Made by a program: the position numbers and the translations under genes
The notes under the pieces: generated by a model
Seen by the model: only the letters and a program-made list of their open reading frames with translations
Database searches by the model: none
Told to the model about the DNA's origin: nothing
Shown: positions 53,743-57,587 of the stretch, piece by piece
Layout: each line of letters opens with the position of its first letter
Position numbering within the stretch: the stretch's first letter is position 1
Assembly: GCF_000524195.1 (NCBI RefSeq)
Contig: NW_020170382.1
Span: forward strand, 3,159,446 to 3,223,445
Source of the DNA: Echinococcus granulosus
Taxonomy: Eukaryota; Platyhelminthes; Cestoda; Cyclophyllidea; Taeniidae
Length of the DNA: 64,000 bases
Reading direction: 5' to 3'

Positions 53743-55314
53743 TCAGTATTCCTCCTCCTCTTCACCCTCGCCCTCCACGCTGTCTTGTCCTACCTCCTCA
53801 TAGTCTTTCTCCAGGGCTGCCAGATCTTCACGAGCCTCAGAAAACTCGCCCTCCTCCATGCCTTCACCGACATACCAGTGAACGAAGCAACGTTTGGCGT
53901 ACATCAGATCAAATTTGTGGTCCAGACGGGCCCAGGCCTCCGCAATCGCTGTTGTGTTGGAGATCATACATAGTGCCCGTTGAACCTTCGCAAGATCACC
54001 GCCTGGAACCACAGTAGGTGGTTGGTAGTTGATGCCAACCTTAAAGCCGGTTGGACACCAGTCGACGAACTGGATGGTCCTCTTGGTCTTTACGGTGGAG
54101 ATGGAAGCATTGACTTCCTTGGGAGCAACATCTCCGCGATAGAGCATACAACAAGCCATGTACTTTCCGTGGCGTGGATCACATTTAACCATCTGATTGG
54201 CTGGTTCGAAGCAGGCATTAGTAAGTTCTGGAACCGTGAGTTGTTCATGGTAGGCCTTTTCAGCTGATACAGTAGGTGCATAAGTAACTAGAGGAAAATG
54301 AATTCTTGGATAAGGCACCAGGTTTGTTTGAAACTCTGTGACATCCACATTCAGGGCTCCATCGAAACGCAGCGATGATGTTAGTGAGCTGCACACCTGA
54401 GCAATAATGCGATTCAGATTGGTGTAAGTCGGACGTTCAATGTCGAGATTGCGTCTAGAAAGGGTGATGTCAGTTAAGAGATACATGTAAAGTATATTTC
54501 ATAAATGCGGACACGAAAATCTACCGGCATATGTCATAGCAAGCCTCATTGTCAAACGTGAAGCAGCAGTCTGAATGCTCGATGGTTGAATGTGTGCAAA
54601 GAATGGCGTTGTAAGGTTCAACCACAGCCGTGGAGATCTGAGGTGCAGGGTAGATGGAGTATTCCAGCTTCGATTTTTTTCCGTAATCTACACTGAGCCG
54701 TTCCATAAGCAGGGAAGTGAATCCAGATCCTGAACCACCTCCGTACGAATGGAATATGAGGAAACCTTGGAGACCAGTGCATTGGTCTGCAACTTTGCGA
54801 GTTCTGTCGAGAACTAGATCCACCATTTCCTTCCCTACTGTGTAGTGCCCACGAGCGTAGTTGTTAGCTGCGTCCTCTTTCCCGGTAATAAGTTGATCGG
54901 GATGAAATAACTGACGATAAGTCCCGGTTCGCACCTCATCTATACATTTCAAAAGAAGGGGTTAGTAAGACAAAGGTATGGGCGGTGGATAAAGATGTAT
55001 TCCGCGTATACATACCGATAACAGTGGGTTCTAGGTCGACAAAAATTGCTCGAGGAACGTGTTTTCCAGCACCAGTTTCACTAAAGAATGTCGAGTAAGA
55101 GTCATCTCCACCTCCAATTGTCTTGTCGCTAGGCATTTGACCATCAGGCTGGATTCCATGCTCTAGGCAGTAGAGCTCCCAACAGGCGTTTCCAATCTGA
55201 CAACCACCCTGGCCAATGTGGATACTGATACATTCACGCTAAAAAAAGAAAGTTTAAATGTACGCAGTATTTTAAGCAACCACTTGCAGGAGCACTTTGC
55301 GAAAAACTCACCAT
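53743..55314 (-). CDS. Alpha-tubulin
   Basis: Exons 55314-55312, 55238-55016, 54939-54525 and 54454-53743 encode 450 residues. The first exon carries only the ATG; an intron straight after the start codon is usual in animal alpha-tubulin genes. The second starts [20 protein letters not shown]. Lys40 ([10 protein letters not shown]), the luminal acetylation site, is present. Glu254 ([15 protein letters not shown]), needed for GTP hydrolysis in the beta subunit pocket, is present. The tail ends [11 protein letters not shown], with a C-terminal Tyr that can be removed and re-added and a Glu run suited to glutamylation. The nucleotide loop is GGGSGSG rather than GGGTGSG. Other changes ([34 protein letters not shown]) suggest a moderately divergent isotype. 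It forms the obligate heterodimer with beta-tubulin. Confidence 0.95.
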
Positions 55315-55987
55315 TTTGAAAGATAGCAGTTGCAGTTGACGCAGCCGAGACTGTTCCGAAAGTGTCGAGTTGTCGACTTTGCGAGTGGCGGATCGATAAT
55401 TTGAAAATCCTCATTACGTCTACGACGCGGAGATATCGACTGCAAACAGCTGATTTCCGCGGTCACTGGTCCATCTTGTTGGGCGAAAAGTAAAACCCAC
55501 CGAAAGCCACACTCCGGCTACTGGGGCAAAAGCTGTACACCTTCCTTCCAGCCCACATGCCAATTTAGTAAGGTAGCGACTGCTGTTTTGAAGCGTTCCT
55601 TCCTTTAGGGTAGTGGGACGCTCGCTAGCCCCCTCCCCAATTTGGTCCCTCAATTTGAACCAAAAAAGTAATGACGCTTTAAGTACCGCGGCTCCAAGTA
55701 AGAAGCATGCTAGTTTTGAAAACACCCTCTGTGCTAGTTTACGGTGGCACTATCGAAGCTTTCTAAGAGAAGCCGATTTGGATAGCGAGAAATAAATAAA
55801 ATTAAATATTCCCCCCTAACGACAAGAATGTTAAATACTCCTTTATTCTACAAAGGAACCGACTTAACTTTCCCAAGCAGCCACTGTTCACGGAAAGAAG
55901 TATCATATTTTGTTGGAAAAAATATACAACGCACTGGATTGTCACGGGTATGGACAAAATAAATAAACTAGAGGGGCCTACATAATC

Positions 55988-57587
55988 TTAACGGGAAAGC
56001 CAGCAAATTGCGTAGACCAAGACACAAGCAGAGGTTACACATAAAAGCTTCGTTTTAAAGCTCATCTCTTCTGTGTTGACAACTGATATTCCAGTTGGAG
56101 ATGACGATCCCACGGGCTGAAGTCCTTCACTATCCTTTTCCAACTAAATTCAAAATACCGAATAAATAGCGATTGCAATATTTTCCATTCCTTTAAAATA
56201 AGTAGACATACGCGTTTCTGGAGTGTTGCAAAAAGCAAGTTCAGTTTCGACGCGATCTCCATCTAAGAAGCCGAAACAAGTGAGCGCATTAAGAAAGCGA
56301 ATTAAGAAATATATTAAAGCACAACAAGAGCAAAAGGCTAACCTGAGAAGAATACACCTCTTGAACTTTTTCTACACTGTCGTGAAAATCACCCTGAAAA
56401 TTGGGAGAGAGTAGATAATGACTAGAGGTGCAAAAACCAGCCCCCAAAACTACATACCTCGTATTACTTTTCAGATTAATTGGGAAAAAAAACGAATAAG
56501 AGGAAACGAGAGGACCCTCCGTTCATGTAAAATAGGTAGACATACCTGTTTCTGAAGTGCTGAACAGAGCAAATTTAGCTTCGACGCAACTTCCATCTAC
56601 GAAACCAAAAAAAGAAAATTAAGAAAATACATTGGAAAGAAGCGGATTAAAGTGCAGCGAAAACGGGAAACTCACCTGGGAGGTATAAACTTCTCCGACT
56701 TTTTCCACACTGTCGCGCAAGTCAGTCTAAAAAATGGCAGCAGAGCAGATAATAATGAGAGAGGTACCAACAAACTCCGAAAAATTAGAAATTTTTTTAG
56801 CTTAGAAATACGGGAGACCTACAGATTGTGCTGTGTGGAATCGAAGCCATGTTGCGAATGCAGAAAAGAATCCTACGATTACTGAACCAAGGAGTGCCCA
56901 TTGACGCATTCGCATATCATAGTTCCGTTCTTCTACATGCATATAACGCAAAAGACTCGTAAACTTTTCGTACGTAGCGCGTTCAACAAGATCAGCCTCA
57001 TGATGCTGCGATGCCAGCTGGGCCTCTTCCCGAGCTAACTGGATTTAAGAAATGGATTCTTCCCTTTAGAAATAGGCCATTCTAGCAAGCAATAAAAAGG
57101 GAAAGTGGATGCAACACCCACTTCGTGCTCCTTGGTGATCAAGGAAAGGAAGGAGTCATCAGCACGTGAAACGACATCCAACTGCTTATTTACTTCATTG
57201 CGTTTCTTTTGCACGTCAAACAAAGCCTGCTGGAGCGTTCGCCTCTGCAGCTGTGAAGCCACGAAATCTTGTTCGGCCTAGAATACGTGAACGCTTAACC
57301 TTGTGAACCTGTAAGAGCTCAACACCGGCTTTTCTGACAGCATCTCTGCCAGATACTTTGTCGTATAATAAAGAAAATTTGTCCACGGATGTATCTATCT
57401 TGGAGTGAATACAGCTACCCAATTTTTCGTAGGATGATTTTATTATGTCAAAGTGACGGTTACTATCTAAAACTGATTTGAGCGAAGACATTCTAGAGGA
57501 ATCCAATAGTTTTGCGTTTGCATTGTTAGAAAACTTTGTAATGGATTCAACAGCCTTGGAAATAAAGCTACGGCAGTATCTTGACAT
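55988..57587 (-). CDS. CCDC51: CCDC51-like mitochondrial coiled-coil membrane protein (MITOK family) with duplicated exon pair
   Basis: Exons 57587-57309, 57277-57122, 57038-56823, 56726-56676, 56596-56546, 56393-56343, 56262-56212 and 56143-55988, all phase 0, encode 336 residues if all are used. The match to human CCDC51 covers YDKVSGRDAVRKA, a coiled coil (QQALFDVQKKRNEVNKQLD then VVSRADDSFLSLITKEHE), a membrane segment (WALLGSVIVGFFSAFATWL) and a C-terminal membrane segment (LLCVTSACVLVYAICWL). CCDC51/MITOK is an inner mitochondrial membrane protein reported as the pore of the mitochondrial ATP-sensitive potassium channel. The N-terminus is Arg/Ser/Lys-rich with few acids, fitting import into mitochondria. 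ATG 57587 is used because the frame further upstream has no ATG. Four 51-bp exons form two copies of an exon pair (described separately). Intron 1 is only 31 bp. Confidence 0.85.
56200..56745 (-). repeat. Tandem duplication of a two-exon unit in CCDC51 (period about 333 bp)
   Basis: Exon 4 (56726-56676, TDLRDSVEKVGEVYTSQ) pairs with exon 6 (56393-56343, GDFHDSVEKVQEVYSSQ). Exon 5 (56596-56546, MEVASKLNLLCSALQKQ) pairs with exon 7 (56262-56212, MEIASKLNLLFATLQKR). All four are 51 bp and phase 0-0. The intron sequence between members of each pair and the flank GTAGACATAC are also alignable, so this is a DNA-level duplication, not convergence. Confidence 0.85.
57278..57308 (-). other. 31-bp intron 1 of CCDC51
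   Basis: GTTCACAAGG...ATTCTAG. Its length is not a multiple of three, and removal connects ELLQ to AEQDFVASQL in the frame that matches CCDC51. It is the shortest intron seen here. Confidence 0.7.

What the first reader, a model, noticed from the sequence alone, without database searches (positions are those of the whole stretch)
56200..56745. Duplicated 51-bp exon pair in a CCDC51/MITOK gene, possible combinatorial exon use
Two consecutive 51-bp phase-0 exons are repeated once with period about 333 bp, including alignable intron sequence. The pair encodes a 34-residue helical module between the two membrane segments of a protein whose human relative is a mitochondrial potassium channel pore. 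Because each exon is 17 codons in phase 0, any inclusion or exclusion keeps the frame, so the linker length could be tuned by alternative or mutually exclusive splicing. I know of no description of this for the family.
Basis: partly seen in the sequence, partly recalled or inferred. Interest (0 to 1): 0.75.

Follow-up and report, generated by a model that had tools for sequence, protein, structure and literature searches.

The report
Tapeworm mitochondrial gene with doubled exons
A tapeworm gene for a mitochondrial inner-membrane protein carries a real, old tandem copy of two short exons, and the available messenger RNA evidence shows all four exons used together, so the copy most likely lengthens one helical part of the protein and is not shown to be a splicing switch.

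Summary
On the minus strand lies a CCDC51 (MITOK) gene whose spliced product is identical over 336 residues to an Echinococcus granulosus record. Exons A1, B1, A2 and B2 are each 51 nt, phase 0, repeated at 333-334 bp; the copy includes intron sequence, and the middle intron is a hybrid of the two flanking ones, as a tandem segmental duplication predicts. Both copies evolve as protein (dN 0.18, dS 1.58). The proposed combinatorial use is not supported. A record from short contigs (P0011) reads e3-A1-B1-A2-B2-e8 without a break, so it must come from spliced RNA; the public E. granulosus model has all four exons; a dedicated search found no shorter E. granulosus form. Of 8 taeniid, hymenolepidid and anoplocephalid records, 5 carry four units; 3 gene models omit one or two in frame, so lineage loss, skipping or annotation error stay open. 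Best reading: a constitutively spliced tandem exon-pair duplication that doubles the intermembrane-space coiled coil, each exon adding about five turns of one hydrophobic stripe, with a predicted helix break between modules. A new example of a known kind.

The parts
57309..57587 (-). exon 1 (279 nt, phase 0): N-terminus with net charge +3 in residues 1-29, likely mitochondrial targeting sequence, then coiled coil
   Evidence: targeting role inferred
57278..57308 (-). 31-nt intron 1
   Evidence: the spliced protein matches P0001 over all 336 residues
57122..57277 (-). exon 2 (156 nt, phase 0): matrix coiled coil (side by analogy with human)
   Evidence: homologous to the human CCDC51 fragment
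56823..57038 (-). exon 3 (216 nt, phase 0): end of the matrix coiled coil and TM1 (protein 192-210)
56727..56822 (-). intron 3 (96 nt); homologous to the 3' part of intron 5
   Evidence: 62/92 aligned columns, 0 of 1000 shuffles
56676..56726 (-). exon A1 (17 codons): TDLRDSVEKVGEVYTSQ
56597..56675 (-). intron 4 (A1-B1), 79 nt, homologous to intron 6
56546..56596 (-). exon B1 (17 codons): MEVASKLNLLCSALQKQ
56394..56545 (-). intron 5 (B1-A2), 152 nt: hybrid intron holding the seam of the duplication; 5' part like intron 7, 3' part like intron 3
56343..56393 (-). exon A2 (17 codons): GDFHDSVEKVQEVYSSQ
56263..56342 (-). intron 6 (A2-B2), 80 nt
56212..56262 (-). exon B2 (17 codons): MEIASKLNLLFATLQKR
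56144..56211 (-). intron 7 (68 nt), homologous to the 5' part of intron 5
55988..56143 (-). exon 8 (156 nt with stop): spacer of low model confidence and TM2 (protein 316-334)

Best explanation
An ancestral tapeworm CCDC51 gene had one pair of 17-codon exons (A, B) coding a 34-residue helix on the intermembrane-space side of TM1 [inferred from one-module outgroup gene models]. A recombination between introns 3 and 7 duplicated the pair in tandem and left a hybrid intron (intron 5) between the copies [hybrid intron shown from sequence; the recombination itself inferred]. The event predates the split of Echinococcus from Taenia and Hydatigera [supported by shared diagnostic residues, not by DNA of the other species]. 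Both copies are spliced in constitutively [supported by a spliced read-type record and gene models; not quantified], so the intermembrane-space coiled coil is doubled to 68 residues. Each exon codes about five turns of one hydrophobic stripe (17 residues, period about 3.4), so adding whole exons keeps the stripe in register [periodicity shown; structural consequence inferred]. The second module is predicted as a separate helix after a short break at the module boundary [low to moderate model confidence]. Likely effect: a longer or hairpin-like intermembrane contact surface for self-association or partner binding of this inner-membrane protein [inferred].
For: The four-exon spliced model matches the E. 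granulosus record at 100% over 336 residues. P0011 (lgn source, 9 contigs, longest 3647 nt, 3 member sequences) reads through all five junctions e3-A1-B1-A2-B2-e8. T. crassiceps P0003 holds both modules; P0006 (one 1010-nt contig, 309-aa uninterrupted frame) and Anoplocephala P0009 hold four units. No shorter Echinococcus form among the 202 candidates. dN 0.175, dS 1.58, Fisher p 9e-6 (site counts rounded down); 24/34 residues kept where 17.9 are expected from random placement of 27 changes, P 0.0015. The three taeniid A2 copies share F3 and Q11, against L3 with G11 or R11 in the four A1 copies; the two B2 copies share F11, against C11 in the three B1 copies (read). Hydrophobic period 3.42 in E. 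granulosus and T. crassiceps and 3.40 in Anoplocephala; 2, 3 and 4 of 2000 shuffles reach the moment. Helix breaks at 251-254 in the E. granulosus model and 225-229 in the T. crassiceps model, both at the B1/A2 boundary. In CCDC51-depleted human cells, CCDC51 with residues 227-364 (intermembrane coiled coil) replaced by a linker predominantly failed to rescue mitochondrial shape (PMC11668171, passages read).
Against: Three of 8 informative taeniid/hymenolepidid/anoplocephalid records omit units exactly at exon boundaries: T. asiatica P0002 lacks A2B2, Hydatigera P0007 (a partial model) lacks B1 and B2, H. microstoma P0008 lacks A2. Assembled contigs favour the dominant isoform, and the database is clustered at 90% identity, so minor isoforms could be hidden. 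Splice donors differ (A1 9/9, B1 8/9, A2 7/9, B2 6/9 matches to the consensus), which could bias inclusion, although the three other donors of the gene score only 5, 6 and 5. In E. granulosus B2 is closer to T. crassiceps B1 (14/17) than to T. crassiceps B2 (10/17), so exchange between copies or a separate origin is possible. The module tree is unresolved. The hydrophobic period is nearer 3.5 in the Hymenolepis-like, T. asiatica, Mesocestoides and Spirometra stretches, and in T. asiatica 105 of 2000 shuffles do as well.
Confidence: 0.8

Rival explanations
1. Regulated skipping: the four symmetric exons are used in different combinations (0, 1 or 2 modules, or single exons) in different stages or tissues, tuning the length of the intermembrane coiled coil.
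For: All 16 combinations are in frame. Three tapeworm gene models omit one or two units exactly at exon boundaries. Exon skipping makes up 16% of splicing events reported for Echinococcus protoscoleces (PMC5440512, passages read). A2 and B2 donors match the consensus less well than A1 and B1 donors.
Against: The spliced E. granulosus record holds all four; no short form found. Phase 0 applies to every exon of the gene, so it is no sign of selection for skipping. Donors of exons 1-3 are as weak or weaker. Gene models in this family are visibly unreliable: P0005 leaves the frame after TM1 and P0003 lacks part of the exon 1 region. Intron retention, not skipping, was the commonest event type (PMC5440512).
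Confidence: 0.12
2. Mutually exclusive use of the two modules (one pair or the other, never both).
For: Tandem duplicated exons are a known source of such events (PMC9741552, PMC9013439, passages read). The T. asiatica model has one module.
Against: P0001, P0003, P0006, P0009 and P0011 hold both modules in one protein. Introns between the copies are 79-152 nt, longer than the 31-nt intron spliced in the same gene; of 10 intron pairs tested, the strongest is reached by 16 of 200 shuffles.
Confidence: 0.03
3. Recent Echinococcus-only duplication; the second modules of other tapeworms arose separately.
For: Introns are still alignable; E. granulosus module 2 is closer to its own module 1 (24/34) than to T. 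crassiceps module 2 (20/34), and closest to T. crassiceps module 1 (26/34); second modules of P0006 and Anoplocephala barely resemble their first (8/34, 7/34).
Against: dS about 1.6 is not recent; T. crassiceps and Hydatigera share A2-diagnostic residues with E. granulosus. Exchange between copies can explain the rest.
Confidence: 0.2
4. Assembly or annotation artefact.
For: Rests on one assembly at the DNA level.
Against: The copies differ at 27 of 102 coding nt and the spliced record holds both.
Confidence: 0.01

Closest known systems
CCDC51/MITOK (human) and its yeast counterpart Mdm33/She9
   Same: Positively charged N-terminus, coiled coil, TM1, helical segment, TM2 at the C-terminus; 41/120 identical to a published human fragment.
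   Different: Eight coding exons here against three in human (exons 2-4 coding, PMC8346125, passages read). TM1-TM2 spacing about 105 residues here (210 to 316) against about 165 in human (222 to 387, PMC8346125). Here 68 of these residues are two 34-residue copies.
Tandem exon duplications (human, fly, worm catalogues)
   Same: Neighbouring homologous exons in one gene (PMC9013439, PMC9741552, passages read).
   Different: The unit is a pair of exons, and both copies sit in the same transcript instead of substituting for each other.
Mutually exclusive exon clusters (such as tropomyosin, Dscam)
   Same: Equal-length homologous exons in tandem.
   Different: Both modules are in one mRNA.
Micro-exon genes of flatworms
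   Same: Flatworm gene with small symmetrical exons.
   Different: Only 204 of 1011 coding nt lie in the 51-nt exons; the family is that of a mitochondrial membrane protein, whereas micro-exon gene products carry a signal peptide (PMC4350168, passages read).

Membership tests
CCDC51/MITOK | Sequence homology to human CCDC51 | tested here: met
   BLASTP 41/120 identical, E 5e-17; profile comparison E 3.5e-13; human fragment of 129 aa taken from PMC8346125, so only the part up to TM1 was compared
CCDC51/MITOK | Two transmembrane segments with helical (coiled-coil) stretches before and between them | tested here: met
   Hydropathy peaks 192-210 and 316-334; predicted helices 81-128, 134-250, 255-291
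CCDC51/MITOK | Mitochondrial inner-membrane location; channel or fission activity | not testable with these tools
   No localisation or activity data for this protein
Pfam She9_MDM33 (PF05546) | Match of this protein to the Pfam model | tested here: not met
   P0001 has no listed match at E up to 10; 1 of 11 alignment members matches, E 0.0087, its score against the cut-off not shown. Relatedness of CCDC51 and Mdm33 is taken from PMC11668171
Tandem exon duplication | Adjacent homologous exons plus homologous introns in the same gene | tested here: met
Mutually exclusive exons | The homologous exons are never in the same transcript | tested here: not met
   P0011 and P0001 hold both modules
Alternatively spliced cassette exons | Transcripts with and without the exons | tested here: inconclusive
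   No short E. granulosus form; three gene models of other species omit units; no reads available
Micro-exon genes | Most of the coding region in very small symmetrical exons (definition from PMC4350168, passages read) | tested here: not met
   204 of 1011 nt in the 51-nt exons
Micro-exon genes | Product with a signal peptide, secreted or plasma-membrane anchored | not tested
   No signal-peptide prediction was run

The most novel reading that the evidence does not exclude
Tapeworm CCDC51 is built from interchangeable 17-residue exon units, each five turns of one hydrophobic stripe, and tapeworm lineages or life stages vary the number of units (2, 3 or 4) in the intermembrane-space coiled coil by exon gain, loss or skipping, so that the reach of a mitochondrial inner-membrane fission/channel protein is set at the exon level.
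Probability: 0.15. Interest if true: 0.55.

Novelty: new member of a known kind. Interest (0 to 1): 0.27.

Why it matters
The intermembrane coiled coil is the part of human CCDC51 that is needed for its effect on mitochondrial shape (PMC11668171, passages read), and no flatworm description of CCDC51 turned up in the searches of the held library. Tapeworms seem to offer a natural series with one or two copies of a defined helical unit in exactly that part, which could be used to ask how its length matters. As an evolutionary event it is ordinary: a tandem duplication of two exons, kept and used.

Tried and rejected
Mutually exclusive splicing by too-short introns, by other splice-site types or by competing RNA pairing: all seven introns are GT-AG; the introns around the modules are 68-152 nt; duplex energies of 10 intron pairs among five introns are unremarkable (16 to 176 of 200 shuffles as low).

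Origin of A and B from one 17-codon exon: hydrophobic positions 3, 7, 10 and 13/14 recur in most units, but pairwise A-B scores are weak (shuffle p 0.05-0.13 in E. granulosus, 0.01 in Spirometra) and a shared coiled-coil pattern explains them. Not claimed.

Tree of the 34-residue modules: unresolved (9 inner branches, 0 well supported, 8 drawn open).

Pfam and solved-structure searches gave no useful family for this protein. RNA family and tRNA scans of the window were empty. Tandem Repeats Finder did not report the pair; the direct-repeat search did. Structure matching was not run because the models are of low overall confidence (pTM 0.40 and 0.36).

So gene-model omissions in other species could not be checked against DNA. 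Of the 12 protein records, P0005 (model leaves the frame after TM1) and P0012 (N-terminal fragment) were dropped from the module count; P0004 and P0010 were counted as one-module outgroups.

The shuffles were scanned on a coarser grid of periods than the real sequences, which slightly favours the real ones.

Full report
What was checked. The finding claims a repeated pair of 51-nt exons in a CCDC51 gene and suggests combinatorial splicing. I rebuilt the gene on the minus strand: eight coding exons of 279, 156, 216, 51, 51, 51, 51 and 156 nt, all phase 0, with seven GT-AG introns of 31, 83, 96, 79, 152, 80 and 68 nt. [quoted passage not shown] The window's assembly has 103.6 Mb; a protein search of it gives four matches from eight scored candidates, all four inside this gene, so it is single-copy at that sensitivity.

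The repeat is real. A1/A2 and B1/B2 lie 333 and 334 nt apart. The exons are 73 and 75% identical (37/51, 38/51), and the introns align as well. Module 1 finds module 2 in the whole window at E 2.9e-15, and the pair is the only direct repeat of 40 nt or more within 1.5 kb that the repeat finder reports in the window. Intron 5, between the copies, matches intron 7 in its 5' part and intron 3 in its 3' part. That is what a tandem duplication with both breakpoints in the flanking introns leaves behind.

It is old and both copies matter. Between the copies dS is 1.58 and dN 0.175 (22 synonymous and 80 nonsynonymous sites; Fisher p 9e-6 on counts rounded down); 16 of 27 differences are in third positions; 24 of 34 residues are kept against 17.9 expected for random changes. 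With only 22 synonymous sites the dS value is rough. Taenia crassiceps carries both modules, and Hydatigera carries both A units. A2 units of all three genera share F3 and Q11, and B2 units of Echinococcus and T. crassiceps share F11, while the A1 units have L3 with G11 or R11 and the B1 units C11 (read), so the duplication most likely predates these genera. The B2 unit of E. granulosus is closer to T. crassiceps B1 (14/17) than to its B2 (10/17), which suggests some sequence exchange between copies.

How many units other tapeworms have. Of 12 protein records, 8 are taeniid, hymenolepidid or anoplocephalid with readable linkers. Five carry four units: P0001, P0003, P0006, P0009 and P0011. Three carry fewer: T. 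asiatica P0002 (A1B1), Hydatigera P0007 (A1A2, a partial model), H. microstoma P0008 (A1B1B2). Mesocestoides P0004 and Spirometra P0010 have one 34-residue stretch that I align by eye to a module. P0005 and P0012 are not informative. The species of P0006 is inferred from its similarity to P0008. The second modules of P0006 and P0009 resemble their first ones weakly (8/34 and 7/34), so I do not claim that they come from the same event. Exon boundaries in these other species were not seen.

Is splicing combinatorial? P0011 comes from contigs of at most 3647 nt (source code lgn, which I take to be assemblies of public sequencing runs; inference) and reads MHVEE...TDLRDSVEKVGEVYTSQ-MEVASKLNLLCSALQKQ-GDFHDSVEKVQEVYSSQ-MEIASKLNLLFATLQKR-LEKD... 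to the C-terminus. Genomic DNA cannot give this reading, because five introns interrupt it; so it is spliced RNA with all four exons. It stands for 9 contigs and 3 member sequences; I could not see the members apart. A further search with P0011, whose length window admits fragments with one or no module, returned only P0011 and Hydatigera P0007 among 202 candidates. Full-length one-module forms would have fitted the length window of the first search, which returned P0001 alone from Echinococcus; but clustering at 90% identity could hide a short form in a cluster. These results are against frequent skipping in whatever samples fed the database; they do not measure it. The genome-wide splicing paper for Echinococcus protoscoleces (PMC5440512, passages read) lists intron retention as commonest (39 and 42%), skipping 16%, mutually exclusive exons 1%; its main text does not mention CCDC51, and its supplements could not be opened. 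In human, PMC8346125 (passages read) raises a possible second CCDC51 isoform that differs in the 5' region, not in the linker.

What the modules do. The gene belongs to the CCDC51 family by sequence (41/120 identical to a human fragment printed in PMC8346125). Hydropathy peaks at 192-210 and 316-334 mark TM1 and TM2. The modules lie between them, on the intermembrane-space side by analogy with human CCDC51 (PMC8346125, PMC11668171, passages read). Most units repeat the pattern of hydrophobic residues at positions 3, 7, 10 and 13/14; the best period is 3.42 in E. granulosus and T. crassiceps and 3.40 in Anoplocephala (2, 3 and 4 of 2000 shuffles as strong), that is five turns per 17 residues. 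The P0006, T. asiatica, Mesocestoides and Spirometra stretches peak at 3.46-3.54 (28, 105, 1 and 50 of 2000 shuffles as strong). AlphaFold2 models of P0001 and P0003 run TM1 straight into module 1 and break at the boundary to module 2, which forms its own helix (breaks at 251-254 and 225-229). In human cells, CCDC51 without its intermembrane coil (227-364) predominantly fails to rescue mitochondrial shape, while loss of the matrix coil is tolerated (PMC11668171). A product without modules would therefore probably be defective; one with a single module may resemble the state in outgroup tapeworms (inference).

Verdict. The anatomy in the finding is accurate. The most likely mechanism is plain: tandem duplication of an exon pair, both copies constitutively included, doubling a coiled-coil segment that is required in the human protein. 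Combinatorial use is a live but minority possibility, resting on three in-frame omissions in gene models. On novelty: searches of the held paper library for CCDC51 with flatworm (0 papers), tapeworm with exon duplication (1 unrelated paper), two or more of six CCDC51/cestode/exon-duplication terms (12 of 3,343 listed, none of the 12 holding CCDC51), and CCDC51 with splicing terms (7 papers, seen as a listing, not read) showed no description of this; most subscription papers are not held.

Noticed in passing
window 53745-55314, minus strand: An alpha-tubulin-like gene lies on the same strand, its start codon about 670 nt downstream of the CCDC51 stop, with an apparent first exon holding little more than the start codon (identification by recall of tubulin sequence). 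An AATAAA-type signal lies at 55847 between the two.
   Followed up: partly
window 57278-57308, minus strand: A 31-nt intron is spliced in this gene; P0012, a Taenia-like fragment, seems to read into the same intron and so retains it or is genomic.
   Followed up: no
window 57038-56823, minus strand (P0011 start): The frame of P0011 begins at an internal methionine of exon 3 although its longest contig is 3647 nt, which would fit retention of intron 2 in otherwise spliced RNA (inference).
   Followed up: no
window 55988-57587, minus strand: All seven introns of the gene are phase 0, so every internal exon could be skipped in frame.
   Followed up: no
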